From Prevotella sp. (lineage in GTDB: Bacteria; Bacteroidota; Bacteroidia; Bacteroidales; Bacteroidaceae), in NCBI GenBank assembly GCA_017509155.1, contig JAFWQE010000160.1:1-58924 (forward strand): a stretch of 58,924 nt of DNA. Direction: 5' to 3'. Position numbers and translations under genes: made by a program. Positions 18,735-56,388 of this stretch are shown here, in pieces. The first letter of the stretch is position 1. The number at the start of each line of letters is the position of its first letter. Below the pieces are notes generated by a model. It was given only the letters and a program-made list of their open reading frames with translations. It was not told the origin of the DNA and ran no database searches.

Positions 18735-18796
18735 ACAGCCAATTTCAGCCATTCAAAATGGCAGTCTCAGCCAGGTAATCTGGCGGTTTTGCCAAA

Positions 18797-18884
18797 CGAA
18801 TCCATTGATTTCGTTCAACGATTCCATTGATTTTGTTCAACAAATCCATTGGAATTGTTCAACAAAACCAATGGATTTGTTGTT
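18797..18884. repeat. 22-bp x 4 array, copy A
   Basis: There are four consecutive 22-bp units with core CCATTGATTTCGTTCAA. Two weaker TGGC-starting units precede them at the same 22-bp spacing (18759 and 18781). Sister arrays lie at 33316, 47449 and 56171. The rest of the 18643-19000 gap holds only the foldback above and CGTATCATTCGTC near 18957, which is shared with the inverted repeat at 37131-37229. Confidence 0.92.
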
Positions 18885-19000
18885 TTATAACGGCAGATTA
18901 TCAGAACGAATCTGACGAAATAAGCGAATAAAACTGTAGGTTTTGGACGAAAGACTTCGTATCATTCGTCCTGTTCGTTGTAGAAAAAGTCCGTTGTTCC

Positions 19001-19978
19001 TTAGAATTCGCGCTTGGAAACATAGTCGACGTAGGTGTCGAGGGCGGTGGCGATGGCCTTGTCGGCAACGTTCTTTGCGATGAAATCGTGGCATTTCAAC
19101 GTCAGCTCCTCCATTTTCTTCAGGGCATAGTCAATGCCGCCCTTCTCCTTCGCATAGTCAACGAGCACGGCTATTTCGTCGGTACTGATGTTGCCGTTCT
19201 TCACCTTGCGCGCCAATTTCTGCATTGCATCGTCGGGATGATTGTTCAGCGCATAGATGATGGGCAGCGTCAGCTTTCCTTCGGCCATGTCGTTTCCGGT
19301 GGGCTTGCCAATCTGGGCTTCGTCGAAATAGTCGAAGATGTCGTCGCGGATCTGGAAAATGGTGCCGATGTGTTTGCCAAAACGGCCGATTTCATCGGTC
19401 TGATGCTCGTCAACGCCTACGGAGATGACCCCGAGCGTGCAGCAACACTCAAAGAGCGCCGCTGTCTTCTTGTTGATGACGTCGAAGTAGACCTCCTCAG
19501 ACAGTCCGTTGTCGGCATTGTTGGTGAGCTGCAGGATCTCGCCATTCGACAGCGTACGTCCGAGCTCGGCGATGCGCCTGAAGATGACCTCGTTGTGCGT
19601 CTGACTGACCTGAAGCAGACAGGTGGAGAGCACATAGTCGCCTACGAGCACCGCCACCTTATTATTATAGCTGGCGTTGACCGACTCCTGACCGCGCCGT
19701 TCGTGGGCCTCGTCGACCACATCGTCGTGAACCAGGCTCGCCGTGTGGAGCAGTTCAAGTCCGAGAGCGGTGCGCAGCGTGGCGTCGCACACGTCGCCAT
19801 AGTTCTTCGCCATCAACAGCGTGAGAAGCGGGCGCATGCGCTTGCCACCCCTCGAACGAATGTGGGCAAGAGCCTGTCCCAGCAGTCCGTCGGAGTGAGA
19901 AAGCGAGCCATCGAACAGTTTTACAAACTGCTCCATCTCGCGTGCTATCGGTGCGTTGATGGTATTCAGATATTCCAT
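19001..19978 (-). CDS. Trans-polyprenyl diphosphate synthase (octaprenyl synthase type)
   Basis: The 325-residue protein carries both Asp-rich motifs, LVHDDVVDEAHERRG and FQIRDDIFDYFDEAQIGKPTGND, plus the GGKRMRP substrate loop. It chains isopentenyl diphosphate onto an allylic primer to make a long prenyl diphosphate, probably the menaquinone side chain in this group. A TTG start at 19999 is possible, but ATG 19978 gives the usual MEYLNTINAPI start. It is divergent from polA, with 87 bp between the two starts. Confidence 0.92.
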   Translation of the reverse strand: MEYLNTINAPIAREMEQFVKLFDGSLSHSDGLLGQALAHIRSRGGKRMRPLLTLLMAKNYGDVCDATLRTALGLELLHTASLVHDDVVDEAHERRGQESVNASYNNKVAVLVGDYVLSTCLLQVSQTHNEVIFRRIAELGRTLSNGEILQLTNNADNGLSEEVYFDVINKKTAALFECCCTLGVISVGVDEHQTDEIGRFGKHIGTIFQIRDDIFDYFDEAQIGKPTGNDMAEGKLTLPIIYALNNHPDDAMQKLARKVKNGNISTDEIAVLVDYAKEKGGIDYALKKMEELTLKCHDFIAKNVADKAIATALDTYVDYVSKREF

Positions 19979-20037
19979 GTTGACGGAAATTTCATGCAAA
20001 ATTAGTCATTTTATTCGGATTAATGAAAAAGATTTCG

Positions 20038-20045
20038 TAATTTTG
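20038..20045 (+). promoter_or_regulatory. polA promoter -7 box
   Basis: TAATTTTG matches TAnnTTTG and lies 20 bases before the polA ATG. Confidence 0.6.
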
Positions 20046-20065
20046 ACCGAAAATACAGATTATTT

Positions 20066-22852
20066 ATGGAGAAATTGTTTCTTTTAGACGCATACGCCCT
20101 GATATATCGGTCGTATTATGCCTTTATCAAGAATCCGCGCATCAACTCGAAAGGTCTGAACACATCGGCCATTCTTGGATTTTGCAACACCCTTCACGAG
20201 GTCATGGAGAAAGAGAAGCCCGCCTATCTGGGCGTCGCCTTCGACCCTCACGGTCCCACCTTCCGCAGCGAGGCCTTTGCAGCCTACAAGGCGCAACGCG
20301 AGGCCACACCCGAGGACATCCGACTGTCGGTGCCCATCATCAAGGACATCCTGGCGGCCATGAACATCCCGGTGCTGCAGGCAGATGGCTTCGAGGCCGA
20401 CGACGTGATTGGCACTTTGGCGAGAAAGGCCGATGAAATGGTGAAAAACGGAAGTCAGAGCGGACTCCACACCTACATGCTGACGCCCGACAAAGACTAT
20501 GGGCAGCTGGTCACTGACAACGTTTCCATCTACCGTCCGCGCCACGGTGGCGGCTACGAGGTGATCGATGTGCAGGGCGTGTGCGACAAGTACGGCATCG
20601 ACAAGCCCGAACGCGTCATCGACCTCCTGGCGCTCATGGGCGACTCGGCCGACAACTTCCCCGGCTGTCCTGGCGTAGGCGAGAAGACGGCCGTGAAACT
20701 TATCAGCCAGTTTGGAACGGTTGAGCAGCTGCTCGACAACACCGCCGACATCAAAGGCAAGCTTCGCGAGAAAGTGGAGGCGGCAGTAGACGACATCAGG
20801 CTGTCGAAGTTCCTGGCCACCATCCGCACCGACGTTCCGGTGGAGCTGCAACTCGACGAACTGCGTCTGTCAACCCCCGACGAGGAAAAACTCACCCAGA
20901 TCTTCGCCGAACTGGAGTTTCGCACCCTCGCAGCGAAAATGTTGAACAAAAAAGAAAATGTGCAAAAAAAAGTAAATTTTCAACCCAGTCTCTTTGAAGA
21001 ATTTGCGCCCGAGGGTGAAGCTGGTGAAAAATTTTCGATTCTCAGAGACATGTCTTCGACTAATCATCAGTATCAACTAATTGAAAATGAGGAAGATGCG
21101 CGAAAAATTTGTGCAGAAATCTTGACAAAACCGTTTGTCAGTTTTGACACGGAAACGACTTCAACCTCTGCGATTGACGCCGAACTCGTGGGTTTGAGCT
21201 TTGCTGTGAAGGAAAATGAGGCGTTTTATGTGGCCATTCCCACTGAACGCAAAGAAGCAATAAAGTTTGTTAATATATTTAAACCACTGTACGAAAACCC
21301 AAAGATTGTTAAGATAGGTCAAAATATCAAATATGATTTGGAGGTGCTAAGAAACTATGATGTCAGACTGGCAGGGCCAATGTGGGACACCATGATTGCC
21401 CATTATCTCATCCAACCGGAGCTGCGCCACAACATGGATTACATGGCCGAGACGATGCTCAACTACCAGACCATCCACATCGATCAGCTCATCGGACCGA
21501 AGGGAAAAGGGCAGAAATCGATGCGCGACCTGCCGCCTGCCGACGTCTATGAATACGCCTGCGAGGACGCAGACATCACCCTTCAGCTGAAGAACAAACT
21601 GGAGCCGATGCTGAAGGAAAAGAATGTGGAGGAGCTGTTCTACGACATCGAGATGCCGCTGGTGGAGGTCTTGGCCGAGATGGAAATGAACGGCGTGCGC
21701 ATCGATACGCAGTCGCTGGCCGAGACATCGGGCATCTTCACCGCCAGAATGAAGCAACTGGAGGCCGACATCTACGAGCTGGCAGGCGAGGAATTCAACA
21801 TTGCGTCGCCCCGACAGGTGGGAGAAATACTGTTCGGAAAAATGAAAATCGTGGACAAGCCCAAGAAGACCAAGACCGGACAATACGTCACTTCGGAGGA
21901 GGTGCTGCAGCAACTGCGCGGCAAGAGCGACATCATAGACAAGATACTGGCGCACAGAGGGTTGAAGAAACTCCTCGGAACATACGTCGATGCACTGCCA
22001 AAACTCATCAACCCACGCACCAACCACATTCACACATCCTTCAATCAAACGGTGACGGCGACGGGACGTTTGTCGAGCAGCGACCCCAATCTGCAGAACA
22101 TTCCCGTGCGAGGCGAGGACGGAAAAGAGATACGCAAGGCGTTCATTCCTGAGCCGGGATGCCTGTTTTTCTCGGCAGACTACAGCCAGATAGAGCTGCG
22201 CGTGATGGCCCATCTGAGCGAAGACGAGAACATGATACGCGCCTTCCAGGAGGGCTACGACATACATGCCGCCACAGCTGCCAATATCTATAAGAAAGGT
22301 GTTGACGAGGTGAGTCGCGACGAACGAACGAAAGCCAAGCGCGCCAACTTCGGAATCATCTACGGCATCACCGTGTTTGGCCTGGCCGAGAGGCTCGACA
22401 TCAGTCGCGAGGAAGCACGACAGCTCATCGACGGTTATTTCGAGGCGTTCCCAAAGGTGCACGAATACATGGAGACATCCAAACAGATGGCGCGCAGCAA
22501 AGGCTATGCCGAGACGTTCTTCCACAGGCGCCGCTACCTGCCAGACATCAATTCGCGCAACGCCACAGTGCGCAATTTCGCCGAGCGAAACGCCATCAAC
22601 GCTCCCATACAAGGCTCCGCCGCCGACATCATCAAGGTGGCCATGATACGCATCTTCCGCCGTTTCCGCGAGGAAGGCATCCAGTCGAAGATGATCCTTC
22701 AGGTGCACGACGAACTCAACTTCTCCGTCGTGCCCGAGGAGAAAGAGCGCGTGCAGGCCATCGTCCTTGAAGAAATGCAGCGCGCCTACGCCCTCCGCGT
22801 GCCCCTGGTTGCCGACTGCGGGTGGGGCGAAAACTGGCTGGAAGCGCACTAA
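20066..22852 (+). CDS. polA: DNA polymerase I
   Basis: The 928-residue protein has the N-terminal 5'-3' exonuclease (LLDAYALIYRSYYAF, LQADGFEADDVIGTLA, GDSADNFPGCPGVGEKTA), a 3'-5' exonuclease-like domain with FDTETTS near residue 366, and the polymerase domain with SADYSQIELRVMAHL, RTKAKRANFGIIYG and ILQVHDELNFSV. It acts in Okazaki-fragment processing and repair. The linker and start of the 3'-5' domain (about 20940-21370) are clearly AT-richer than the rest, with runs of A and T-ending codons. A RAYT transposase and its repeats follow 12 bp after the stop. Confidence 0.98.
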   Translation: MEKLFLLDAYALIYRSYYAFIKNPRINSKGLNTSAILGFCNTLHEVMEKEKPAYLGVAFDPHGPTFRSEAFAAYKAQREATPEDIRLSVPIIKDILAAMNIPVLQADGFEADDVIGTLARKADEMVKNGSQSGLHTYMLTPDKDYGQLVTDNVSIYRPRHGGGYEVIDVQGVCDKYGIDKPERVIDLLALMGDSADNFPGCPGVGEKTAVKLISQFGTVEQLLDNTADIKGKLREKVEAAVDDIRLSKFLATIRTDVPVELQLDELRLSTPDEEKLTQIFAELEFRTLAAKMLNKKENVQKKVNFQPSLFEEFAPEGEAGEKFSILRDMSSTNHQYQLIENEEDARKICAEILTKPFVSFDTETTSTSAIDAELVGLSFAVKENEAFYVAIPTERKEAIKFVNIFKPLYENPKIVKIGQNIKYDLEVLRNYDVRLAGPMWDTMIAHYLIQPELRHNMDYMAETMLNYQTIHIDQLIGPKGKGQKSMRDLPPADVYEYACEDADITLQLKNKLEPMLKEKNVEELFYDIEMPLVEVLAEMEMNGVRIDTQSLAETSGIFTARMKQLEADIYELAGEEFNIASPRQVGEILFGKMKIVDKPKKTKTGQYVTSEEVLQQLRGKSDIIDKILAHRGLKKLLGTYVDALPKLINPRTNHIHTSFNQTVTATGRLSSSDPNLQNIPVRGEDGKEIRKAFIPEPGCLFFSADYSQIELRVMAHLSEDENMIRAFQEGYDIHAATAANIYKKGVDEVSRDERTKAKRANFGIIYGITVFGLAERLDISREEARQLIDGYFEAFPKVHEYMETSKQMARSKGYAETFFHRRRYLPDINSRNATVRNFAERNAINAPIQGSAADIIKVAMIRIFRRFREEGIQSKMILQVHDELNFSVVPEEKERVQAIVLEEMQRAYALRVPLVADCGWGENWLEAH

Positions 22853-22864
22853 AGCGTTTAAGAA

Positions 22865-22934
22865 GACTGCGGCAGTGTCCGTTCTGTTGACTGCGGCAGT
22901 GCCTGTTCTGTAGACTGCGGCAGTGCCGCAGTTT
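22865..22934. repeat. Three tandem 24-bp REP-like units before the RAYT gene
   Basis: GACTGCGGCAGTG begins at 22865, 22889 and 22913, an exact 24-bp period. The third copy completes the palindrome CTGCGGCAGTGCCGCAG. The same palindrome or variants occur at 23407 inside the RAYT gene and at 35471 and 36584 inside the beta-helix gene. Confidence 0.9.
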
Positions 22935-22985
22935 ACTCAACGGGGAAAGAAGAAAGCAAAAGGAAAAGAAGAAAAAAGAGGAGAA

Positions 22986-23993
22986 ATGGACAACAACGGC
23001 ACCCATAGCAATCCTACGAAATGGGAAAGATACGCAAAGGAAAAGAAGCCATCGATGAAGCGTCGCTGCGAACAAAATGACTACCACGACAGGCGTATCT
23101 ACATGATAACCATCGCTACAGAAGGCAGGCGCCCCTTGCTCGGCACTATCAGAGGAAAATCTAACGTTTCTGAAGGAGAAGAAGCACCACATGTGGACCT
23201 GTCTCCTTTGGGCGAGAAAGTCAGAGACTGCTGGATGAGCATCCCTCTTTTCCACCCTCAGATAAGGCACATTAAGCTCTGCATCATGCCAGACCACATT
23301 CATGGCATCCTTTTCGTTACGGAAAGGATGGAAACACATTTAGGTCATGTCGTCAATGGATTCAAAACAGGCACAAGAAAAGCTGCCAAAGAACTTGGGG
23401 TCATTACTGCGACAGTGCCGCAGTCTACAGCGCACGGCCAGCTCTGGGAACCGGGCTACAACGACCGAATCCTCAGCCACGAGGGACAACTGCAGCGCAT
23501 GATGGCCTACCTCGACGACAATCCGCGACGGCTGCTCATCAAACGCGAACACCCAGAATACTTCCGCCAGCTGGGCACCATCACCGTGGCCGGCACACCC
23601 ATGCAGGCCATGGGCAACCGTTTCCTGCTGGACAACCCCGTGAAACTACAGGTGCAATGCTCGCGCAGTCTCACGCCCCAGGAGATAGAACAGCGGAAAG
23701 ACTTCTTCCTGAACGAAGGAACCAGCGGCGCCATCCTCGTCTCACCCTGCATCAGTCCTGGCGAACAGCAGATTGCCACCGCCGCCCTGCAGGCCCATAT
23801 CCCGCTCATCGTGCTCCTGCTAAAGGGCCTCCCACCCTACTTCAAGCCTCAGCCCCGCTACCTCGAAGCCTGTTCCGACGGCCGCCTGCTCATCCTCTCC
23901 CCCTACCCTATCCAGAACCAGCAGCTCACCGACATGCGCCACCGCTGCCTCCATCTCAACGACCTCGCCGACACAATCTGCAATTACTCTTAA
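22986..23993 (+). CDS. REP-associated HUH transposase (RAYT, Y1_Tnp) with C-terminal Rossmann-like domain
   Basis: The product is 335 residues from ATG 22986, preceded by GAGGAG. A GTG start at 22923 would lie in the REP units. The HUH nuclease motif is MPDHIHGILFV. The presumed catalytic tyrosine is in LWEPGYNDRILS, followed by MAYLDDNPRR. After about residue 190 there is an extra domain (NRFLLDNPVKLQVQCSR, GAILVSPCISPGEQQIATAAL, PLIVLLLKGL, GRLLILSPYP) that resembles a DprA/Smf-like Rossmann fold and is not part of the minimal RAYT. Known: RAYTs are domesticated IS200-like nucleases linked to REP palindromes. The neighbouring 24-bp palindromic units, and one copy inside the gene itself (VITATVPQST), fit this. 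Whether it is active is unknown. Confidence 0.87.
   Translation: MDNNGTHSNPTKWERYAKEKKPSMKRRCEQNDYHDRRIYMITIATEGRRPLLGTIRGKSNVSEGEEAPHVDLSPLGEKVRDCWMSIPLFHPQIRHIKLCIMPDHIHGILFVTERMETHLGHVVNGFKTGTRKAAKELGVITATVPQSTAHGQLWEPGYNDRILSHEGQLQRMMAYLDDNPRRLLIKREHPEYFRQLGTITVAGTPMQAMGNRFLLDNPVKLQVQCSRSLTPQEIEQRKDFFLNEGTSGAILVSPCISPGEQQIATAALQAHIPLIVLLLKGLPPYFKPQPRYLEACSDGRLLILSPYPIQNQQLTDMRHRCLHLNDLADTICNYS
23407..23423. repeat. REP-like palindrome inside the RAYT gene
   Basis: CTGCGACAGTGCCGCAG differs from the upstream palindrome by one base and is followed by the same TCTACA-type flank as at 36601. It encodes TATVPQST between the HUH and tyrosine motifs. Confidence 0.75.
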
Positions 23994-24006
23994 ACAATAT
24001 ATAACA

Positions 24007-25260: not shown

Positions 25261-25277
25261 ATTCCAGTTTTTTATTG

Positions 25278-25285
25278 TACTTTTG
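25278..25285 (+). promoter_or_regulatory. higBA promoter -7 box
   Basis: TACTTTTG matches TAnnTTTG, with a TTTG about 25 bases upstream. Transcription would begin near 25292, after the only in-frame TTG of the toxin. Confidence 0.6.
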
Positions 25286-25307
25286 CAGCAAAATTAAAGA
25301 AACGGTC

Positions 25308-25610: not shown

Positions 25611-25619
25611 CAGACGATT

Positions 25620-25922: not shown

Positions 25923-25945
25923 ATATAAATTAGAAATAAGAAAAT

Positions 25946-27046
25946 ATGGCATTGAAATGTGGTATTGTGGGACTGCCCAATGTGGGCAAGTCTACGCTGT
26001 TTAATTGTCTGTCGAGCGCGAAGGCTCAGGCAGCCAACTTTCCTTTTTGTACGATTGAACCCAACGTGGGCGTCATCACCGTTCCCGACGAGCGACTGAC
26101 GCGGCTGGCCGAACTGGTGCATCCGGGCCGCATTGTGCCCGCCACGTGCGAGATAGTGGACATTGCCGGACTGGTGAAAGGCGCATCGAAGGGCGAGGGA
26201 CTGGGAAACAAGTTCCTGGGAAACATCCGCGAGACCGACGCCATCATACACGTGCTGCGCTGTTTTGAAGACGAGAACATCACGCATGTTGACGGAACCA
26301 TCGACCCCATCCGCGACAAGGAAATCATCGATACGGAACTGCAGCTGAAGGACCTTGAGACCATCGAGAGCCGGTTGGCCAAAACCGAGAAGGCAGCGGC
26401 CGCAGGCAACAAGGAGGCGAAGGTGGAAGCAGGCGTGCTGAAGGCTTACAAAGAGGTGCTGGAACAAGGAAAGAACGCGCGCATTGTGGAGTTCGACACG
26501 AAGGATGAACAGGATGTGGCGCGCAATTTGTTCCTTCTTACGGCCAAGCCCGTGCTATATGTGTGCAACGTAGGTGAGGCCGACGCCAAGAGCGGCAACG
26601 ACTTCACCCGCCGCGTGGAGGCACTGGCCAAGGAGGAAGGCGCCGAGGCCATGGTGATAGCTGCCAAGACCGAGGAGGATATTGCAGAGCTGGAGTCGTA
26701 TGAAGACAAGCAGCTGTTCCTCGAAGAGCTGGGACTGGAAGAGAGCGGTGTGAACCGTCTCATCAAGAAAGCCTACGCCCTGCTCAACCTCGAGACGTTC
26801 ATCACCGCCGGCGAGATGGAGGTGAAGGCCTGGACATACAAGAAAGGCTGGAAGGCACCCCAGTGCGCCGGCGTCATCCACACGGACTTCGAGAAAGGCT
26901 TCATCCGCGCCGAGGTCATCAAGTACGACGACTATATCAAGTATGGCTCAGAGGCTGCTGTCCGCGAGGCTGGCAAGATGGGCGTGGAAGGCAAGGAATA
27001 TGTAGTACAGGACGGCGACATCATGCATTTCCGGTTTAATGTTTGA
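25946..27046 (+). CDS. ychF: Ribosome-associated GTPase/ATPase YchF
   Basis: The 366-residue protein is full length. Walker A is GLPNVGKST near residue 9, followed by FPFCTIEPNVG and DIAGLVKGASKGEGLGNKFL. The N-K-x-E-type specificity loop (YVCNVGEAD) and the C-terminal TGS domain (FITAGEMEVKAWTYKKG, QDGDIMHFRFNV) are present. YchF (Ola1 family) prefers ATP and is linked to the ribosome and stress response. The stop codon overlaps the first unit of the 22-bp array at 27045. Confidence 0.97.
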   Translation: MALKCGIVGLPNVGKSTLFNCLSSAKAQAANFPFCTIEPNVGVITVPDERLTRLAELVHPGRIVPATCEIVDIAGLVKGASKGEGLGNKFLGNIRETDAIIHVLRCFEDENITHVDGTIDPIRDKEIIDTELQLKDLETIESRLAKTEKAAAAGNKEAKVEAGVLKAYKEVLEQGKNARIVEFDTKDEQDVARNLFLLTAKPVLYVCNVGEADAKSGNDFTRRVEALAKEEGAEAMVIAAKTEEDIAELESYEDKQLFLEELGLEESGVNRLIKKAYALLNLETFITAGEMEVKAWTYKKGWKAPQCAGVIHTDFEKGFIRAEVIKYDDYIKYGSEAAVREAGKMGVEGKEYVVQDGDIMHFRFNV

Positions 27047-27132
27047 ATGGATGAAGGATGAAAGATGATGGATGAAGGATTGATAGATGATGGATGAAGG
27101 ATTGATAGATGATGGATGAAGGATTGATAGAT
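27045..27132. repeat. 22-bp x 4 array, GGATGAA family, left of four-helix-bundle gene
   Basis: Four units of 22 bp start at 27045, 27067, 27089 and 27111. The last three are identical and contain GATGGATGAAGGATTGATAG. The units are built from smaller GGATGAA steps. Confidence 0.92.
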
Positions 27133-27160
27133 ATTATGATAAAAACGTAAATGTAAGATT

Positions 27161-27541
27161 ATGGAAGCATTCTATTTTCGGAGATTGGACGTTTATCAAA
27201 ACGCTAAGGCTCTTTCACGTTTTATCTGTCAACTTATCAGGAACTTCCCTGCTGATGAACGCTTCGGTATGTGCAACCAGCTAAGAAGGGCTGTCATGTC
27301 CGTTCCTATCAACATTGCAGAAGGATTTGGAAGGTTCTCTTCAAAGGAAAAGGCTCATTTCATAGAGATTGCATTCGGCTCACTAACCGAAGTAATGTGC
27401 GAACTTGAGATTTGTCTTGACGAACATTATATATCCCAAGAAGAATTCAACGATGCTGAAAACAAGATTATGCTTGTTGCAAAACAGCTTTCAAAGTTAA
27501 GGACATCTGTCCTGAACAACGGTGATTCCATCTACAAATAG
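27161..27541 (+). CDS. Four-helix-bundle protein (S23 / 23S rRNA intervening-sequence type)
   Basis: The 126-residue protein matches the four-helix-bundle family first known from intervening sequences of 23S rRNA genes: FRRLDVYQNAKALSRFICQL, FGMCNQLRRAVMSVPINIAEGFGR, SFGSLTEVMCELEICLDEHYI and AKQLSKLRTSVLN. The function is not established; the fold is shared with Avd accessory proteins of diversity-generating retroelements. The gene is visibly AT-richer than its neighbours, suggesting separate origin. It is flanked on the left by a GGATGAA 22-bp array and on the right by a longer array of the opposite orientation (27613-27833), so gene plus arms form a large inverted-repeat unit between ychF and lgt. 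Confidence 0.88.
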   Translation: MEAFYFRRLDVYQNAKALSRFICQLIRNFPADERFGMCNQLRRAVMSVPINIAEGFGRFSSKEKAHFIEIAFGSLTEVMCELEICLDEHYISQEEFNDAENKIMLVAKQLSKLRTSVLNNGDSIYK

Positions 27542-27612
27542 TTATATCTATTCACACAACTGAATCCCCATCATCTCTCATCATCATCACCCATTTTTCA
27601 CCACTCATCCAC

Positions 27613-27833
27613 CAATCCTTCATCATTCATCCATCAACCCTTCATCACCCACCCATCAATCCTTCATCATTCATCTTTCATCCTTCATCCATTCACCCAC
27701 CAATCCTTCATCCATTCACCCACCAATCCTTCATCATTCATCTTTCATCCTTCATCCATTCACCCACCAATCCTTCATCACTCATCCATCAATCCTTCAT
27801 CATTCATCTTTCATCCTTCATCCATTTAATAAC
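27613..27833. repeat. 22-bp-periodic array, inverted orientation, right of four-helix-bundle gene
   Basis: CAATCCTTCATC or close variants begin at 27613, 27635, 27657, 27701, 27724, 27768 and 27790, giving steps of 22, 22, 44, 23, 44 and 22. The sequence is the reverse complement style of the array at 27045. Similar TTCATCC text continues from about 27566 and past 27854 into lgt. The 27542-27853 gap holds nothing else. Confidence 0.9.
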
Positions 27834-27853
27834 ACTTACAATCCAATAAAAAT

Positions 27854-28759
27854 ATGATACTTACAATCATTCATCCATCATCTTTTATCCTTCATCCATT
27901 GTTCATCAATTGGAATCCGAGCCTCACGTTCGGGCCTTTCCGCTGGTATTCGCTGTGCTGGCTTATCGGACTGGCGCTGGCATATTTCATTGTCAGGAAG
28001 CTGTTTAAAGAACAGAAGATTGACGAGCGGACGGTGATGAAGAACGGAAAAAAGGAAGTGGAGAACGTCTTCGACCCATTGTTCATCTACTGTTTCGTGG
28101 GCATCCTTGTGGGAGCCCGCCTGGGTCACTGTCTGTTTTATCAGCCCGACTACTTCCTGAGCAGCGGACAGCACATCGTGGAGATGCTTCTTCCCATCCA
28201 TTTCCTGCCCGATGGCGGCTGGAAGTTCACCGGCTATGAAGGTCTGGCCAGCCATGGTGGCACGCTGGGCCTGATGATTGCACTGGTGCTCTATGTGCGC
28301 TGGTCGAAGCTCAATGTGTGGACGGTGCTCGACAACATCGCCATCGCCACCGGCACCACGGCCTGTTTTATCCGTCTGGGAAACCTGATGAACAGTGAGA
28401 TCATCGGCAAACCCACCGACCTGCCATGGGCGTTCATCTTCGAGCGTGTTGACATGGTGCCGCGCCATCCCGGCCAGCTCTACGAGGCCATTGCCTACGC
28501 CGTGCTGTTCATTATCATGTGGTGGCTCTATCGCAAAAGCCGCCAAAGTGGCGCGTCGGTGCCGTCGGTGGGCACAGGATTCTTCTTTGGCTTCTGCCTC
28601 ACCTACATCTTCACCTTCCGCTTTCTCATCGAGTTCACCAAGGACATTCAGGAAGACTTCGAGGCCAGCATGCTGCTGAACATGGGCCAGTTGCTCAGCA
28701 TCCCCTTTGTGTTGCTCGGCATTTGGTGCATGGTGAAGGCGTATAAGCGGCGGGCATAG
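27854..28759 (+). CDS. lgt: Prolipoprotein diacylglyceryl transferase
   Basis: The 301-residue membrane enzyme transfers diacylglycerol to the lipobox cysteine of prolipoproteins. It shows [54 protein letters not shown] and the HPGQLYE block. The Lgt body begins at about [10 protein letters not shown]; the residues before it ([15 protein letters not shown]) are encoded by an extension of the ATCCTTCATCC repeat. No later ATG lies before the first conserved block, so the repeat seems to supply the start codon and the first residues. Confidence 0.95.
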
Positions 28760-28763
28760 TGTT

Positions 28764-28956
28764 TAGGAGTTGCAGGAGTTCAGGAGTTACAGGAGTTGAA
28801 GTTTTCTTAGGAGTTGCAGGAGTTCAGGAGTTACAGGAGTTGCAGACGATACGTTTGTGCGCGCTTTTATGGTTATCTGCGGATAAAACTATCGTCTGCA
28901 ACTCCTGTAACTCCTGAACTCCTGTAACTCCTAAAACTAAAAACTGTAACTCCTAA
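28764..28956. repeat. AGGAGTT / GACGATA foldback repeat, copy 1
   Basis: The left arm has two blocks of AGGAGTTGCAGGAGTTCAGG 44 bp apart, ending GCAGACGATA. The centre carries TTATCTGC. The right arm is TATCGTCTGCAACTCCTG with further AACTCCT copies. It lies between convergent lgt and mutS. A second full copy is at 39244-39395 and a half copy at 40902-40964. Confidence 0.92.
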
Positions 28957-28973
28957 GAAAGGAAACTCCTCCG

Positions 28974-33235: not shown

Positions 33236-33252
33236 CCATTTCGGCGAAATAA

Positions 33253-33403
33253 ATCTGCCGTTTTTCTTTCATTAATCTGACGTTTTTTTTCAATTCATCT
33301 GCCGTTTTTCTTCAACCATTCCATTGAAATAGTCCAGCCATTCCATTGATTTTGTTCAACCATTCCATTGAAATCGTTCGACCATTCCATTGGATTCGTT
33401 TCA
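33253..33403. repeat. 22-bp array, copy B, with extra leading units
   Basis: The core is four 22-bp units at 33316, 33338, 33360 and 33382 with CCATTCCATTGATTTTGTTC. Leading units ATCTGCCGTTTTTC start at 33253, 33275 and 33297, also 22 bp apart. This fills most of the 33236-33454 gap. Confidence 0.92.
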
Positions 33404-33454
33404 GGAAACCGTCAGAATAACTCCTTAAAATTGCAGAACCATCAACCCGAATTT

Positions 33455-34588
33455 ATGAAAAAGACCATTGCCATTGCAGCTTTCTGCACGCTCACATTGT
33501 CGTGTACCGGCAACTCTCCCCTCAACGGCGGTCGCGCCAATGGCGGCGACACCACGTCGGTAGCGCCCGAACGCCACCTCAGTCTGCTCATCGCCGGCGA
33601 CCTGATGCAGCACGAGCCTCAGATCAAGGCAGCCCGTCGCGCCGACGGCAGCTACAACTACGACGAGTGCTTCAGTCGCGTGAAGAACGAGATAGAGCGG
33701 GCCGACGTGGCCATTGCCAACTTCGAGGTGACGCTCGGAGGTCCTCCCTACCGTGGCTATCCGCAGTTCTCGGCCCCCGATGAATACCTTAACGCCTGTC
33801 TGAAGGCGGGCTTCGACATCATGCTCACGGCCAACAACCACTGCCTGGACAGCTATCAGCGCGGACTGGAGCGCACCATCCACGTCATGGACTCGCTCCA
33901 CGTGCCCCATCTGGGCACCTATGTGAACCCGCAGGAGCGCCAGCGGCAGTATCCCTTCCTGCTCGAGCAGAACGGTATACGCGTAGTGCTGCTCAACTTC
34001 ACCTACGGCACCAACGGACTGAAGGTGAAGGAACCCAACGTGGTGAACTACATGGACACCACCGAGATTGCACGCGACATCGTGAAGGCTCGCACAACTA
34101 TGAACCCCGACGTGATTATCGCCATTCCCCATTGGGGCATTGAATACCAGACACTGCCGTCGAAAGAGCAGCGCCTGATAGCGCAGTGGCTCCTCGACCA
34201 TGGCGTCGACCACGTCATCGGCGGCCATCCCCACGTGGCACAGCCGCTCGAACTGCTCAACGGCGGCCGCAACCTGGTGGCCTATTCGCTGGGCAACTTC
34301 ATCAGCAACCAGTCGAAACCCAACACCTACGGCGGCTACATGGTGCGCATGGAGTTCACCAAGAACGACAGCACGACGGTGCTCTCGCACAGCGGCTACA
34401 GCATCTACTGGGTGAGCCGTCCGGCAGACACCGGCAACCGCCACAACTATCGGGTGCTGCCCATCGACGAACCCGACAGCGCCCTGACGCCTACTGAGCG
34501 CACCAAGCGCAACACCATCCGTTCGGCCATGCGCCAGCTCTTCGAGAAGAACAACAAGGGAGGCATCAAGGAATACATCTTCAAATGA
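33455..34588 (+). CDS. CapA-family (poly-gamma-glutamate synthesis type) lipoprotein
   Basis: The 377-residue protein has a lipoprotein signal with Cys after CTLTLS. It shows the metallophosphoesterase-like CapA core: LLIAGDLMQHEPQI, ADVAIANFEVTLGG, DIMLTANNHCLDSYQRG, IIAIPHWGIEYQTLPS, GGHPHVAQPLELLNGG and VAYSLGNFISNQ. CapA proteins are tied to polyglutamate capsule retention, but single genes of this family are common in Bacteroidota without capsule genes, so the substrate is open. The stop overlaps the next start (ATGA), implying co-translation with the beta-helix protein. Confidence 0.87.
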   Translation: MKKTIAIAAFCTLTLSCTGNSPLNGGRANGGDTTSVAPERHLSLLIAGDLMQHEPQIKAARRADGSYNYDECFSRVKNEIERADVAIANFEVTLGGPPYRGYPQFSAPDEYLNACLKAGFDIMLTANNHCLDSYQRGLERTIHVMDSLHVPHLGTYVNPQERQRQYPFLLEQNGIRVVLLNFTYGTNGLKVKEPNVVNYMDTTEIARDIVKARTTMNPDVIIAIPHWGIEYQTLPSKEQRLIAQWLLDHGVDHVIGGHPHVAQPLELLNGGRNLVAYSLGNFISNQSKPNTYGGYMVRMEFTKNDSTTVLSHSGYSIYWVSRPADTGNRHNYRVLPIDEPDSALTPTERTKRNTIRSAMRQLFEKNNKGGIKEYIFK

Positions 34589-39243: not shown

Positions 39244-39395
39244 TTAGGAGTTACAGGAGTTCAGGAGTTGAAGTTATCTTAGGAGTTGCAGGAGTTCAGG
39301 AGTTGCAGGAGTTACAGACGTCACTTTCATGCTTTATCTGCTCATTAAACTATCGTCTGCAACTCCTGTAACTCCTGCACTCCTGTAACTCCTAG
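39244..39395. repeat. AGGAGTT / GACGATA foldback repeat, copy 2
   Basis: This has the same layout as 28764-28956: AGGAGTTACAGGAGTTCAGG blocks, a TTATCTGC centre, then TATCGTCTGCAACTCCTG and AACTCCT copies. It separates nadA from PL11. Confidence 0.92.
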
Positions 39396-40901: not shown

Positions 40902-40964
40902 AACCTATCGTCTGCAACTCCTGTAACTCCTGCAACTTCTGAACTCCCGTAAGTTAAACTCCTA
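40902..40964. repeat. Half copy of the AACTCCTG foldback repeat
   Basis: CTATCGTCTGCAACTCCTGT and following AACTCC copies match only the right arm of the foldbacks at 28764 and 39244. No left arm is present. Confidence 0.85.
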
Positions 40965-43920: not shown

Positions 43921-43983
43921 ATGGATGAAAGATGAGGGATGAGGGATGAAAGATGAGGGATGAAGGATGAAAGATGAAGGATT
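43921..43983. repeat. GGATGAA heptamer repeat
   Basis: GGATGAAAGATGA recurs at 43923, 43944 and 43965, a 21-bp step (three heptamers). It belongs to the same family as 27045 and 51825 and lies between the receptor and SusD-like genes. Confidence 0.85.
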
Positions 43984-47228: not shown

Positions 47229-47413
47229 ACAGATGGAAAGACATATATGAAACGGAATACGAAACTTCATTCCTCTCTTAACTTTGTGGAGGTGCCTGTA
47301 TGACGCCATCTGCTATATTTTTGATTTTTTATTGGCAGCTTGACAGGCATTTTGTCGCCAGCCAAACGGCCACCCTTCCATGCAAAACCGACAAAAAGAA
47401 GCGGTGAAAACGA

Positions 47414-47600
47414 CAGTTGGAACCAACAAAAGTGCCAGTTTAGCGGAACAAATCCATTGAATTCGTTCAACAATGTCAATGGAATCGCTCAACAAAATCA
47501 ATGGAATTGTTCAACAAAACCAATGCCTTCGTTTCCCAAAAGCGCCAGTTTGACTTTCTGAAACCGACAATCCGCCTGCGACGTTTTGTCAATCTGCCTG
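47414..47600. repeat. 22-bp array, copy C, with leading and trailing units
   Basis: The four core units (47449-47536) contain CCATTGAATTCGTTCAAC or AATGGAATTGTTCAAC. Leading units with CAGTT begin at 47414 and 47436 and trailing units with GCCTG at 47574 and 47596, all spaced by 22 bp. Confidence 0.9.
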
Positions 47601-47690: not shown

Positions 47691-47730
47691 ACCTTCCGCA
47701 GAAAAGCCCCCCCTTTTTTCCTTTCTGCGC

Positions 47731-47866
47731 CTCTGAACTCCCTCCCTTTGGGAGGGCCGGGGTGGGTCTTTTCGCCTCTGAACTCCCTCCCTTCGGGAGG
47801 GCCGGGGTGGGTTCTTTCCGCCTCTGTATTCCTTCTTTGGGAGGGCCGGGGTGGGTTCCCTCCCTC
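47731..47866. repeat. Three tandem 45-bp GC-rich REP-like units
   Basis: Units begin at 47731, 47776 and 47822 with CTCTGAACTCCCTCCCTT (the third degenerate). Each carries a TTTGGGAGGG or TTCGGGAGGG fold and CCGGGGTGGGT. They stop 3 bp before the porZ stop codon. Confidence 0.9.
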
Positions 47867-51195: not shown

Positions 51196-51247
51196 GGGTG
51201 GTGGCTGTTGGATGATGGGCGTTGGATGGTGGTGGCTGGCCGGAAGG

Positions 51248-51826
51248 CTATGCGTTGAGCAGGTAGGCAGCCAGCTGGGCCGTAGCCCTTGCCCGGTGGG
51301 AGATGCGGTTCTTTATGTCCATGCCCAGTTCGGCGAAAGTCTGGTCGTAGCCGTCGGGCATGAAGATGGGGTCGTAGCCGAAACCTTCGGCACCGCTCTT
51401 CTCGCGGGTGATGGTTCCGTTCACGATGCCCTCGAAGAGCTTCTGCTCGTTGCCCTGCAGCAGGGCGATGACGGTGCGGAAGCGGGCTGCACGGTTGTCC
51501 TCGCCATCGAGCTTTTGCAGCAGCTTCTGCATGTTGGCCTCGCTGTCGTGACCTTCTCCGCCGGCATAGCGCGCCGAGTAGATGCCGGGCTCGCCGCCAA
51601 GGGCATCCACCTCAAGACCTGTATCGTCGGCGAAGCAGTCGTAGCCGTATTTGTCGCGTATGTAGCGGGCTTTCTGAAGGGCATTTGCCTCCAGCGTGGT
51701 GCCGGTTTCGGGAATGTCGTCGTGGCAGCCGATGTCGCTCAGCGACAACACTTCTATCTTGTGGCCCAGAATCTGCCTGATTTCGGAGAGCTTGTGGGCA
51801 TTGTTGGTGGCGAAGACTATTTGCAT
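51248..51826 (-). CDS. rdgB: XTP/dITP diphosphatase (RdgB/HAM1)
   Basis: The 192-residue protein shows [15 protein letters not shown], the [24 protein letters not shown] block, [20 protein letters not shown] and the terminal SHRARA. It removes deaminated purine nucleotides (ITP, dITP, XTP) from the pool. Its start codon overlaps the first unit of the 44-bp array, so the array occupies the region where its leader and promoter should be. It lies 52 bp upstream of the GT2 gene on the same strand. Confidence 0.96.
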
Positions 51827-52088
51827 GGATGAAGGGTGATGGATGAAAGATGAAGGTTTTTTACTGTTATGGATGAAGGGTGGTGGATGAAAGATGAAGG
51901 TTTTTTACTGTTATGGATGAAGGGTGGTGGATGAAAGATGAAGGTTTTTTACTGTTATGGATGAAGGGTGATGGATGAAAGATGAAGGTTTGGTACTGTT
52001 ATGGATGAAGGGTGGTGGATGAAGGATGAAGGTTTTTTACTGTTATGGATGAAGGGTGGTGGATGAAGGAAGAAAGGTTTTTACGGTT
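51825..52088. repeat. 44-bp x 6 tandem array, GGATGAA family
   Basis: ATGGATGAAGGGTG starts at 51825, 51869, 51913, 51957, 52001 and 52045, exactly 44 bp apart. Each unit ends in GTT after a T run and TACTGTT. Units differ at only a few positions. The array fills the gap between rdgB and the YitT-like gene. Confidence 0.97.
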
Positions 52089-52110
52089 GCTGGGGTGGGG
52101 GAGGGGTGGA

Positions 52111-53040
52111 TTACTCCTTGTGCTTTTGCTTTACCTTGACCTTGATGGGGTCGAAGCCCTCACCGAAGACACCGATGACGGCGCTCTGCGACACAAAGGC
52201 TTTGGGGTCGAGGTGCTTGATGATGCGGAAGATGGTGGCGCTCTCGTTCTTCTTGGCCAGTATGCAGAGCACCTTGCGCTCTTGTCCTGTGTACCATCCA
52301 TGGCCGTCGAGGATGGTCACGCCGTGGTCCATTTTCGTGCCAATCTGGTTGGCTATCTCCTGCCATTTGTCAGAGAAGATGAGGAACTGCACAGACGAGC
52401 GCTGGCGGTTGTAGATGTAGTCGAGCATGTAGTTCTCGATGACCAGCGTGCAGAAACCAAACACCACCATGTAGGAGCGCTGGAGAATGGTGCCGAAGGT
52501 TGGAATGAAGAGACAGCTTCCCACAATGATGAAGTCGACAAACACGAGCACCGTGCCGAGCGACATGTTGTAGAACTTGTTCACCGACGCCGCAATGATG
52601 TCGGTACCGCCCGTCGATCCGTTGTTCAGGAAGACAATGCCCAGCGCCGAGCCTGTCATCAGACAGCCCACGATGAGCGACATGAAGTCCTGGCCTTCGC
52701 CCAGTATCTTCACCATTTCCCCGGCCTCGTTGCGCGGAACGAGCTCTTTCATCAGACCCAGCAGGAAGGTTAGCATCAGGATGGCGTATATGGTCTTCAC
52801 CAGAAACTTCCATCCCAGTATCTTCAGGCCTACGATGAGCAGGGCCGCATTCACCAGAAAATAGGTGTACTGGTTGGGGAAGGTGGTGGCATATTCCACA
52901 ATGGCAGCGATACCAGCCACGCCACCCGTCACAATCTCATAGGGCATGAGAAAGAACGTAAAGCCGAAAGAATACAGCACGAGGCCAAGGGTTATGCCAG
53001 CATAATCCTTAGCCTCGTTCCATATAATCTGTCTGTCCAT
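52111..53040 (-). CDS. YitT-family membrane protein (DUF161 + DUF2179)
   Basis: The 309-residue protein has five or so hydrophobic helices with family blocks (GLVLYSFGFTFFLMPYEIVTGGVAGIA, GSALGIVFLNNGSTGGTDIIA). The C-terminal soluble DUF2179 domain reads HGVTILDGHGWYTGQERKVL, IFRIIKHLDPKAFVS. The role of the family is not established. It lies 71 bp downstream of leuS; the gap holds a small TCCAGA-based hairpin set that may terminate leuS. Confidence 0.92.
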   Translation of the reverse strand: MDRQIIWNEAKDYAGITLGLVLYSFGFTFFLMPYEIVTGGVAGIAAIVEYATTFPNQYTYFLVNAALLIVGLKILGWKFLVKTIYAILMLTFLLGLMKELVPRNEAGEMVKILGEGQDFMSLIVGCLMTGSALGIVFLNNGSTGGTDIIAASVNKFYNMSLGTVLVFVDFIIVGSCLFIPTFGTILQRSYMVVFGFCTLVIENYMLDYIYNRQRSSVQFLIFSDKWQEIANQIGTKMDHGVTILDGHGWYTGQERKVLCILAKKNESATIFRIIKHLDPKAFVSQSAVIGVFGEGFDPIKVKVKQKHKE

Positions 53041-53111
53041 GATTGTCGTTTCCTTTTCTGGATTGTCCAGATTGTCCAGAATAACCAGACTGTCTGGACC
53101 AAATAGAATCT

Positions 53112-56051
53112 CTATTTTACCACAATGTTGACCATGCGCTTGGGCACCACGATGACCTTGACGACCTTTTTGTCGCCAATGTACTTCTGTGCGCGCTCGT
53201 CGGAAAGCACGGCCTGCTCAATGGTCTTGTTGTCGGCATCGGCGGGGAATTCCATCTCCAGGCGCGTCTTTCCGTTGAAGGCCACGCCCAGCTTGACGCT
53301 GCTCTCCACCAGATACTGCTCATCCCACGAGGGCCACTGCGCGTCGCACACCGAGCCCGTGCCGCCAAGCATCTCCCAGAGTTCCTCGGCAATGTGGGGA
53401 GCAAACGGCGCAATGAGCGTCACCAGGGTGCGCATCACCTGCTTGTTTGCACACTTCATCGACGAAAGCTCGTTCACGCAGATCATGAACGCAGAGATGC
53501 TGGTGTTGTAGGAGAACTGAGGAATGTCCTGCGACACCTTCTTGATGAGCTTGTGAACGCTCTTCAGCTCGTCCTTTCCCGGCTGTTCGTCCGAGCTGGC
53601 GCCCGTTGCAAGGTTCCAGAATTTCTTGAGGAAGCGGTGGCAACCGTCTATGCCGTTGGTGTCCCAAGGCTTCGACTGCTCCACGGGACCGAGGAACATC
53701 TCATACAGACGCAGCGTGTCGGCACCGTAGCGCTCCACAATCATGTCGGGATTCACCACGTTGAACATCGACTTCGACATCTTCTCGATGGCCCAGCCGC
53801 ACACGTATTTGCCGTCCTCGAGAACAAACTCGGCGTCGTTGTATTCCGGACGCCACGCCTTGAATGCCTCCACGTCGAGCACATCGTTCGACACAATGTT
53901 CACGTCAACGTGTATGGGCGTCACGTCGGCATAGTCTTTCTTCAGACCGAGTGACACAAACACCGGATGGCCTTTCTCCTGACTGGCCACGTTGTCGCGG
54001 TAGACGAAGTTGGAGCGTCCCTGAATCATGCCCTGGTTGACGAGCTTCTGGAACGGCTCGTCCTTGCACGAAACACCGAGGTCGAAGAGGAACTTGTTCC
54101 AGAAGCGCGAGTAGATGAGGTGGCCGGTGGCATGTTCGGTGCCGCCCACGTAGAGGTCCACGTTCTGCCAGTACTGGTCGGCTTCCTCCGACACCAGTGC
54201 GTTCTCGTTCTTCGGATCCATATAGCGCAGGTAGTAGGCCGAGCTGCCGGCGAAGCCCGGCATGGTGTTCAGCTCCAGCGGGAACACCGTCTTGTGGTCG
54301 ATAGCACTGCAATCGACTACTTGACAGTTTGCAGTGTCCCAGGCCCATTTCCTGGCGTGGCCCAGCGGGGGCTGTCCGTCCTCGGAGGGCTTGTAGTGGC
54401 TCACCTCTGGCAGTTCGAGGGGCAGGCACTGCTCGGGTATCATATAGGGCATGCCGTCCTTGTAGTACACGGGGAACGGTTCGCCCCAATAGCGCTGGCG
54501 AGAGAAGATGGCGTCGCGCAGGCGGTAGTTCACCTTCACGCGGCCAAGGCCTTTCTCCGTCACGTATTCCTTCGTCTTCTGTATGGCTTCCTTCACGGTC
54601 AGGCCGTTCAGGGAGAACTCTCCGTTGGAGCTGTTCATCACGATGCCTTCCTTGGCATCGAAACTTTCCTCGCTCACATCGGCACCTTCGATGAGCGGAA
54701 TGATGGGAAGGTCGAAGTGGCGCGCAAAGGCATAGTCGCGAGAGTCGTGGGCTGGCACCGCCATGATGGCGCCCGTGCCGTAGCCGGCCAGCACATATTC
54801 GGCTATCCAGATGGGGATTTGCTTGCCTGTCAGGGGATTGATGGCGTAGCTGCCTGAGAAGACGCCCGTCACCTTGTGGTCCATCTGGCGCTCGCGCTCC
54901 GTGCGCTTCTTTACATAGGCCAGATATTCCTCCACCTCGGCTTTCTGCTCGGGCGTGGTCAGCTGTTCAACCAGCTCGCTCTCGGGTGCCAGTACCATGA
55001 ACGTAACGCCGAAGATGGTGTCGGCACGCGTGGTGAAGATGGTGAACGACTGCGCTTCTCCGCTGCCTCCAGCCACCTTGAATTCCATCTCAGTACCCTC
55101 AGACCGGCCAATCCAGTTGCGCTGTGTCTCCTTCAGAGAGTCGGTCCAGTCTATCTCGTCAAGACCATCGAGCAGACGCTGGGCATACGCCGAGACGCGC
55201 AGACACCACTGACGCATCTTCTTCTGAACGACAGGGAAGCCGCCGCGAACACTCACACCGTCCACCACTTCATCGTTGGCCAGCACCGTGCCCAGACCAG
55301 CACACCAGTTCACCATCGTCTCGCCCAGGTAGGCAATGCGGTAGTTCATCAGCACCTCCTGCTGCTCTTTCTCGCTCATGGCCTTCCATTCGTCGGCCGT
55401 GAAACTGAGTTCTTCGCTCTGCGCCACGTCGTAGTTCTCCAGACCCTTCGTGCCGTTCTGCTCGAAATAGGCTATGAGTTCGGCGATGGGATGGGCTGCA
55501 ATTGAAGAGTTACCGGCCCCCCCTACTGCCCCCGAGGGGGCTTCTTTAGTATTGGAAGATGTAACTATCGTGTCCCCCTCGGGGGACGACAGGGGGGCTA
55601 ACTTTCTTCCATAGTAGCTCCCGAACATCTTCTGGAACGCCCATTGCGTCCACTTGTAGTAGATGGGCTCGCAGGTGCGCACCTCGCGTTCCCAGTCAAA
55701 CGAGAAGCCAATCTTGTCGAGCTGCTCACGATAGCGCTTGATATTGGCCTCGGTGGTGATGGCCGGATGCTGGCCCGTCTGTATGGCATACTGCTCGGCG
55801 GGAAGGCCGTAGGCGTCGTAGCCCATCGGGTTCAGCACGTTAAAGCCCTGCTGACGCTTGAAACGCGCGTAGATATCGCTGGCAATATAGCCCAGCGGAT
55901 GGCCCACATGCAAGCCCGCACCGCTCGGGTAGGGGAACATGTTGAGCACGTAGAACTTCTTTCTCTGCTTGTCTTCAACAACGCGGTAGGTTTTCTCGTC
56001 CACCCAGCGCTGCTGCCATTTCTTCTCAATTTCTCTGAAGTTGTATTCCAT
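53112..56051 (-). CDS. leuS: Leucyl-tRNA synthetase with repeat-derived insertion
   Basis: The 979-residue class I synthetase has the HIGH-type motif in [16 protein letters not shown], the editing domain ([39 protein letters not shown]), KMSKS in [14 protein letters not shown] and the anticodon-binding C-terminus. It charges tRNALeu. Between residues about 151 and 180 ([12 protein letters not shown] to [11 protein letters not shown]), within the insert-rich region before the editing domain, there is an extra segment encoded by two GC-rich hairpins at 55514-55602. The frame is intact on both sides, so the enzyme is presumably functional. A TAnnTTTG box lies upstream on the minus strand. Confidence 0.97.
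55514..55602. repeat. GCCCCC/GGGGGC repeat inserted in leuS
   Basis: Two hairpins, GCCCCCGAGGGGGC and TCCCCCTCGGGGGA, are joined by an AT-richer spacer. The first with its flank (CCCCCCTACTG, CTTCT) matches the copies at 45636 (inverted) and 40854. Confidence 0.9.
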
Positions 56052-56073
56052 ATTAAATAAGTATTTTGCGGTG

Positions 56074-56081
56074 CAAATTTA
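56074..56081 (-). promoter_or_regulatory. leuS promoter -7 box
   Basis: It reads TAAATTTG on the minus strand, 22 bases before the leuS ATG. Confidence 0.6.
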
Positions 56082-56170
56082 CGCTTTTTCCCGCATACAG
56101 GCAATAAAAACAACGGTTAATTGCTTCTTTTTTGTTAAACACACGCCTCCATTTCGCCAAATTCGAGAAA

Positions 56171-56258
56171 CGATACCATTGATTTCGTTTAACCATTCCA
56201 ATGATTTCATTCAACAAAACCAATGGATTCGTTCAACAAAACCATTGTTTTTGTTTCT
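56171..56258. repeat. 22-bp x 4 array, copy D
   Basis: Four 22-bp units at 56171, 56193, 56215 and 56237 contain ACCATTGATTTCGTTTAA or CCAATGGATTCGTTCAAC. Trailing GCC-containing units at 56266 and 56288 keep the 22-bp step. The 56052-56388 gap holds otherwise only the leuS promoter. Confidence 0.92.
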
Positions 56259-56388
56259 TGAAAACGCCCTTTTTCCTTCATCATTCTGCCAAAAAACCTC
56301 CCTGAAACTACAAAAAAACGGACGGAACATTTTCATTCCAAGAAACAAAAATCCCTGCCTATCTGTTCGAAGGGCAGGGTATGCAGAG

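What the first reader, a model, noticed from the sequence alone, without database searches (positions are those of the whole stretch)
18759..56300. Ten or so sequence-unrelated tandem arrays share a 22-bp (or 44-bp) period
Seen: exact 22-bp steps at 18797 (x4), 27045 (x4), 27613 (22/44 steps with one 23), 33253 and 33316 (x3 then x4), 37089 (x3 cores), 40795 (x3), 47414-47600 (core x4 plus flanks), 47640 (x2), 56171 (x4), and 44-bp steps at 51825 (x6). The sequences differ between families, yet unit length is constant. Constant length without constant sequence suggests a process that measures length, for example a protein covering two helical turns, or a copying or ligation step with a fixed footprint. 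This is inference; I know of no described system for it.
Basis: partly seen in the sequence, partly recalled or inferred. Interest (0 to 1): 0.8.

Follow-up and report, generated by a model that had tools for sequence, protein, structure and literature searches.

The report
Evenly spaced 22-base palindrome arrays
Genomes of rumen Prevotella and related gut bacteria carry many short DNA elements built of palindromes spaced exactly 22 bases apart; in the stretches of this genome that were examined they sit roughly every 14,000 bases and not close together, which looks like an undescribed set of protein-bound landmarks along the chromosome.

Summary
The 22-bp peak is real and genome-wide, but the window's arrays are not ten unrelated families. 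Four places (18728-18947, 33248-33467, 47381-47600, 56102-56321) are copies of one 220-bp element: three outer, four inner and three outer imperfect palindromes at exact 22-bp steps. In 795 kb of this genome all 41 arrays found have exactly four inner units. Intervals between them are at least 8.2 kb (median 14.3 kb, CV 0.30; random gap choice 0.86, 0 of 10,000 draws as even). A second array type occurs where the first is missing. Relatives carry dispersed arrays with the same step but other palindromes, including Bacteroides mediterraneensis (25 of 25 arrays with four units). In 244 kb from other Bacteroidales families none stood above chance. Palindrome halves do not covary, which argues against RNA hairpins. 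Best reading: platforms for an unknown dimeric DNA-binding protein acting as chromosome landmarks. Binding is inferred from sequence; protein and function are not identified. A mobile element that keeps its distance is the main rival. The window's heptad arrays are unrelated. The papers searched held no description.

The parts
18728..18947 (+). 10-dyad element 1: three outer 22-bp units (18728-18793), four inner (18794-18881), three outer (18882-18947)
   Evidence: 220-position profile score 216; between the DeoC-family aldolase ORF and the polyprenyl synthetase ORF
33248..33467 (-).
   Evidence: score 144, the lowest of the 41
47381..47600 (-). 10-dyad element 3: outer 47381-47446, inner 47447-47534, outer 47535-47600
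   Evidence: score 229; between a phosphodiesterase-family ORF and the PorZ-like ORF
56102..56321 (+). 10-dyad element 4: outer 56102-56167, inner 56168-56255, outer 56256-56321
   Evidence: score 168; upstream of leuS 53112-56051 (-); my ORF caller also has a 119-aa ORF over it

Best explanation
Each element is a platform of ten (3+4+3) DNA dyads, 22 bp centre to centre (about two helical turns), so that ten dimers of one DNA-binding protein, or of two related ones, could bind cooperatively on nearly one face of the helix; the four inner dyads are the core. Elements lie between genes, with a median interval of about 14 kb and none closer than 7.4 kb in any list for this genome. The most likely role is chromosome-wide: anchor or barrier sites that divide the chromosome into loops or supercoil domains. 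Each lineage has its own palindrome, which would mean that protein and sites change together while the geometry is kept. Shown here: the anatomy, the exact step, the fixed unit number, intergenic placement, even spacing, changing sequence between species, lack of base-pair covariation. Inferred: protein binding, cooperativity, and the role in chromosome organisation. The protein is not identified.
For: Exact register: outer units at offset 0 in 44, 42, 44 | 44, 42, 43 of 44 elements, falling to 10 and 16 of 44 at the fourth unit out. Exactly four inner units in 41 of 41 arrays in 795 kb, with two weak solitary hits, and in 43 of 44 in an earlier, partly overlapping set. Some positions 98-99% fixed while others are two-fold degenerate. 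Halves do not covary: Watson-Crick pairings at, near or below the number expected of independent halves; G-T 106 vs A-C 126 mismatches in oriented units; pairings below expectation also in four other genomes. Even spacing: 28 intervals on 13 contigs, minimum 8.2 kb, CV 0.30 against 0.86 (or 0.83, gaps weighted by length) for random choice among 166 intergenic gaps, 0 of 10,000 draws as even. Listed arrays of other genomes, intervals under 8 kb: G010 0 of 38 (P 0.0016), Bacteroides G040 0 of 15 (P 0.02), G006 0 of 13 (P 0.13). No array inside an ORF call among 111 in four other genomes. No preferred neighbour family and no consistent gene orientation. Same 22-bp dyad architecture with other sequences in relatives.
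Against: No protein was found. G016 breaks the spacing rule (7 of 39 intervals under 8 kb, including pairs 0.7-1.6 kb apart). In a longer, capped list for this genome the smallest of 37 intervals is 7.4 kb. Unit number is not four everywhere (modal 6 in G006, 5 in G010 and G016). One congener, G009, showed no lag-22 window in 60 kb, and G003 two against a control mean of 0.6. Several genomes hold more than one array type: in only 7 of 14 species (other than own and G016) with at least two sampled arrays were those arrays clearly alike. Similar palindromes are rare even between close species (13% of pairs at leuS identity 92% or more), which is fast turnover for hundreds of needed sites.
Confidence: 0.45

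Rival explanations
1. A non-autonomous mobile element (MITE-like) whose transposase binds 22-bp repeats and whose target immunity keeps copies apart, by analogy with Tn7: copies spread through intergenic DNA, and each lineage hosts its own family.
For: Dispersed family with some closely similar copies, outer units included (L006, L015-L017, L021, L022). The minimum distance between copies could be target immunity. [quoted passage not shown] BrickBuilt of P. gingivalis is a dispersed minisatellite within a MITE. A process with an 8 kb exclusion zone and otherwise random placement would give a CV near 0.44 (my estimate, not simulated), not far from the 0.30 and 0.37 (both types) seen. Some G016 arrays have longer conserved flanks.
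Against: No target-site duplication stood out at the element ends in 44 copies (the best matches lay inside the outer units). The pattern of fixed and varying positions with a fixed unit number looks like long selection on binding sites rather than a recent burst. No transposase family is among the 25 commonest neighbour families listed in either scan. Tn7 sites are not palindromes (recalled). The search for the Mu/Tn7-type transposase domain was uninformative: 0 of 6 genomes, but its 14 controls did not ring either.
Confidence: 0.25
2. Operator arrays of an abundant regulator that binds as a multimer of dimers, such as an Lrp/AsnC octamer (four dimers, DNA wrapped), acting on transcription near each array.
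For: Four dyads at two-turn spacing suit an octamer of four dimers (architecture recalled). AsnC-domain genes occur in five of six array-bearing genomes searched; in this genome one such ORF (domain at C82:879-1076) begins about 230 bp from an array (C82:182-268).
Against: No AsnC domain hit in G005, which has arrays (assembly 86% complete). AsnC genes also occur in two of three genomes of other families. Arrays do not favour promoters or any gene class. Modal unit number is 5-6 in three genomes. Even spacing is not expected of operators.
Confidence: 0.15
3. Structured RNA: the palindromes act as hairpins in a transcript.
For: Units are palindromic.
Against: No covariation; A-C mismatches as common as G-T in oriented units; exact helical step; no Rfam family in the window at gathering scores.
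Confidence: 0.03

Closest known systems
BrickBuilt minisatellite/MITE of Porphyromonas gingivalis (PMC4596501; outline and abstract, passages, section 5 and section 7 part 1 read)
   Same: Dispersed intergenic tandem repeat of near-equal unit (23 nt) in a Bacteroidales species; one copy lies next to leuS, as here
   Different: 1 to 22.8 repeats per copy, leader and tail with IS5-type terminal inverted repeats, 19 copies; here 22-bp palindromic units, fixed number, exact step, even spacing
REP / BIME elements
   Same: Many intergenic palindromic repeats; BIMEs are discussed as supercoil barriers (PMC6907758, passages)
   Different: Not tandem dyads at a two-turn step and not known to be evenly spaced (recalled)
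Iterons and the lambda O sites
   Same: Tandem sites at about two helical turns; lambda ori has four quasi-palindromic sites (recalled)
   Different: Those sit at one replication origin per replicon; here dozens of arrays along the chromosome
Tn7 right end (TnsB sites)
   Same: Four 22-bp sites side by side; target immunity (PMC11406308, passages)
   Different: Transposon end with partially overlapping sites; no duplication seen here

Membership tests
BrickBuilt / MITE | terminal inverted repeats and target-site duplication | tested here: inconclusive
   no duplication stood out in 44 copies; terminal inverted repeats were not searched separately; conservation stops with the third outer unit
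BrickBuilt / MITE | 23-nt unit, variable repeat number | tested here: not met
   22 bp; four inner units in 41 of 41; repeat number does vary in G006, G010 and G016
REP/BIME | single or paired 20-40 nt palindromes able to form hairpins | tested here: not met
   two weak solitary hits against 41 tandem fours in 795 kb; no pairing covariation
Iterons | direct repeats at a replication origin beside a rep gene | tested here: not met
   arrays spread over the chromosome; no recurrent neighbour family
Tn7/Mu-like transposon ends | Mu/Tn7-type transposase encoded in the genome | tested here: inconclusive
   0 of 6 genomes, but 0 of 14 controls rang either
Lrp/AsnC operators | AsnC-domain regulator present in every array-bearing genome | tested here: inconclusive
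   5 of 6; none found in G005, 86% complete
CRISPR | repeats separated by unique spacers | tested here: not met
   units adjoin, no spacers

The most novel reading that the evidence does not exclude
A chromosome-wide set of evenly spaced, sequence-addressed landmarks (probable domain barriers) in Bacteroidaceae: fixed-number 22-bp dyad platforms for an unknown protein, with the geometry conserved and the recognised palindrome changing from lineage to lineage, so that protein and sites share a fast-changing 'dialect'.
Probability: 0.4. Interest if true: 0.95.

Novelty: categorically new. Interest (0 to 1): 0.82.

Why it matters
What physically bounds supercoil domains in bacteria is open: a review of the E. 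[quoted passage not shown] A set of DNA elements with a fixed form and a minimum spacing of about 8 kb would be a directly testable candidate in a common gut family. Even if the role is different, a geometry kept while the sequence changes between species is a clean case for studying how DNA-binding proteins and many sites change together, or how an element spreads while keeping its distance.

Tried and rejected
RNA hairpins: rejected by the covariation test (in one search units were not turned to one orientation, so its G-T/A-C counts are not informative, its pairing counts are). Transposition marks: no target-site duplication stood out. Gene-class regulator: no enriched neighbour family. Origin or terminus bias: 30 stretches sampled along G016 hold arrays throughout, but origin and terminus were not located and no test was made. 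Orthology of arrays: gene order upstream of leuS is too variable to pair arrays one to one; arrays are enriched in the 2 kb upstream of leuS (29 arrays in 146 one-kb windows, against 46 arrays in about 1,100 others), which may only reflect a long gap there. Palindrome similarity against leuS identity: weak (Mantel r 0.11, P 0.008); 13% of pairs at 92% identity or more are alike (above 0.55), 2-4% below that, with some alike pairs at 79-88%. Mu/Tn7 transposase domain: uninformative. Orientation of consecutive arrays alternates in 19 of 28 pairs, not significant by my estimate. Lag-22 counts were inflated by masked runs and were redone with N masked. One search stopped on a script error after its first tests; the rest was run. 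The literature searches (listings seen) cover only the open-licence library; no description of these arrays was seen there.

Limits on the counts: contigs for one search were chosen for length and mostly because they were known to hold arrays, so density is biased upward (41 in 795 kb, one per 19 kb); intervals cut by contig ends are not counted, and before the second type was known C138 alone had 65 kb without an array. The longer list of 37 own intervals (minimum 7.4 kb) and the lists for G006, G010, G016 and G040 are incomplete (40 candidates scored per search; 148). The inner profile was trained on 29 copies, some of which lie on the scanned contigs. About 1-40 kb per other family cannot exclude arrays in any one family. 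Pfam scans of array neighbours used 80 of 81 own-genome ORFs and 148 of 158 from three other genomes; only the 25 commonest families of each are listed.
Full report
WHAT IS THERE. The window is one contig (C172) of a 3.44 Mb, 229-contig assembly (82% complete, 6% contaminated). A leuS search placed it among rumen Prevotella-like Bacteroidaceae (best hit 84% identity). Printed at 22 bases per line, four of them turn out to be one family. Searching the genome with the first (87 bp) gave 76 matches at E<=1, both strands counted, from 40 scored of 130 candidates. The best 41 rows nearly all run from end to end of the query, and many places match on both strands because the unit is palindromic.

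ANATOMY. In 455 kb, 88 inner units were found, in 22 groups of exactly four. Aligning 44 distinct copies shows ten units of 22 bp. The four inner ones read about AACRAWTCCATTGATTTYGTT. The three on either side share a different palindrome (AAACTG-CAGTTT). With leave-one-out profiles, the six outer units lie at exactly the expected place in 44, 42, 44, 44, 42 and 43 of 44 copies, dropping to 10 and 16 of 44 one unit further out. The element is therefore 220 bp, 3+4+3. A 220-position profile finds the same 41 places on 13 contigs as the inner profile. In these 795 kb all 41 arrays have four inner units; there are two weak solitary hits. One copy outside that set has five.

DNA OR RNA. In 176 oriented inner units, symmetric positions pair about as often as independent halves would, in places less often, and G-T mismatches (106) do not exceed A-C mismatches (126). 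Pairings were below the independent expectation in four other genomes too (579 vs 592, 982 vs 1121, 836 vs 847, 716 vs 805). This argues against hairpins in RNA and for a dyad read in double-stranded DNA. T facing A at positions 8/14 was never seen, although about 12 would be expected, as if at least one half must be strong (my reading).

PLACE. None of 111 arrays examined in four other genomes lies inside an ORF call. My ORF caller put 6 of 44 own-genome arrays inside one: five ORFs of 105-147 aa and one of 633 aa at a contig end. Gene orientation is near the background in this genome and differs between genomes. Neighbouring proteins are diverse: 80 scanned, 109 Pfam families, at most two members each; in three other genomes 148 scanned, 209 families, the commonest being the TonB plug with six.

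SPACING. On 13 contigs (795 kb) the 28 intervals between arrays run from 8.2 to 25.8 kb (median 14.3, CV 0.30). Dealing 41 arrays at random among the 166 intergenic gaps of 200 bp or more gives on average 9.9 intervals under 7 kb (observed 0) and a CV of 0.86 (9.2 and 0.83 with gaps weighted by length); 0 of 10,000 draws reached the observed values. An earlier test on six stretches agreed (0 of 17 intervals under 8 kb, 5.7 expected, P 0.0002). A longer but capped list gives 37 intervals with a minimum of 7.4 kb. A second array type, with unit core CGGACTCGAGTAG, was found six times, on C16, C193 and C138, never within 17 kb of the first type. Both types together give 47 arrays and 34 intervals, minimum 8.2 kb, maximum 33.7 kb, CV 0.37. 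The listed arrays of G010 (0 of 38 intervals under 8 kb, P 0.0016), of Bacteroides G040 (0 of 15, P 0.02) and of G006 (0 of 13, P 0.13) agree; G016 does not (7 of 39, 4.0 expected). Those lists are incomplete.

RELATIVES. With blastn the inner sequence gives in 23 congeners only two weak matches (E 0.02 and 0.09); a profile of it gives 46 weak matches in G005 and 8 in G006 (best E about 1e-6). The architecture is wider. Windows repeating at lag 22 (N masked) against the mean of nine control lags: own 36 vs 1.7 (455 kb), G016 54 vs 0.4 (592 kb), G010 5 vs 0.2, G006 6 vs 0.1, G005 1 vs 0, G004 2 vs 0.1, G003 2 vs 0.6, G009 0 vs 1.0, 80 named leuS loci 68 vs 3.0 (1,583 kb), other Bacteroidales families 1 vs 1.8 (244 kb). 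Palindromy is strongest at period 22 (dyad score 0.587 vs 0.362 column-shuffled, 157 arrays, 55 genomes). Arrays within a genome resemble each other (0.604, 1,703 pairs, mostly own and G016) more than between genomes (0.299, 10,542 pairs), but of 14 other species with two or more arrays only seven exceed the between-species mean plus two SD. Whole-genome searches gave: Bacteroides mediterraneensis (G040) GTTTCCC....GGGAAAC, 25 of 25 arrays with four units and 75 of 75 steps of 22; G006 CAAAACC-GGTTTTG, modal six units; G010 TAAAAG-CTTTTA, modal five; G016 GTAA-TTGA-TCAA-TTAC, modal five. G005 has CAAAATCAGTGATATTG-type units in three- to four-unit arrays. In G040 weaker conserved units, about two on each side, flank the core.

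HOW IT MAY WORK. Exact two-turn spacing, fixed number, dyads and the near-absence of isolated sites point to cooperative assembly of dimers (inference). Even spacing without regard to gene type or orientation points to a chromosome-wide role; domain barriers are the closest open question (PMC6907758, passages read). The main rival is an element that spreads with target immunity, as Tn7 does (PMC11406308, passages). The present data do not exclude it, since an 8 kb exclusion alone would give much of the observed evenness.

AGAINST THE STORY. No protein is identified; an AsnC-family gene next to one array is only a lead. G009 and G003 give little or no support; G016 departs from the spacing rule; unit number varies between species; similar palindromes are rare even between close species.

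KNOWN? BrickBuilt (abstract, passages, section 5 and part 1 of section 7 read) is the nearest description and differs in unit length, number, ends and copy number. That paper also notes that 22-nt repeats had been listed in P. gingivalis W83 without places. The REP survey (word search and passages) holds neither 'Prevotella' nor 'tandem' in its main text. The ten literature searches showed no description of these arrays (listings only for most papers).

Noticed in passing
window 27044-27132, 27597-27898, 43923-43982, 51825-52088: GATGAAG heptad-based arrays with periods 7, 21, 22, 44 and 133; a separate dispersed family (42 matches in the genome at E<=0.001 with the 51825 array as query, 40 of 62 candidates scored).
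   Followed up: partly
window 28761-28967, 39246-39393, 40912-40947, 58893-58923: Arrays of AGGAGTTGC / CTGTAACTC with 8-9 and 17 bp periods, a third repeat family.
   Followed up: no
window 47728-47858: 45-bp repeat with CTCCCTCCCTTTGGGAGGGCCGGGGTGGG, 2.9 copies.
   Followed up: no
G000 C16:105992, C193:14763, C138:13422, 22134, 31672, 88809: Second 22-bp array type (CGGACTCGAGTAG core) in stretches without the first type.
   Followed up: partly
G000 C138:60001-80000: Low GC (0.42) and odd tetranucleotide make-up inside a contig poor in type I arrays.
   Followed up: no
G016 loci L159, L160, L164, L169, L170, L174, L177: Arrays flanked by a longer conserved repeat (F1/F2) that looks itself to be in 22-bp register; in L169 F1 and F2 adjoin without a core.
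   Followed up: partly
L028 (G000 C82:182-1103): AsnC/Lrp-family ORF about 230 bp from an array.
   Followed up: partly
window 27161-27541: ORF matching the 23S rRNA-intervening sequence protein family, between two heptad arrays.
   Followed up: no
80 leuS loci L079-L158: 22-bp arrays are enriched in the 2 kb upstream of leuS across species with different palindromes; BrickBuilt_12 of P. gingivalis also adjoins leuS.
   Followed up: partly
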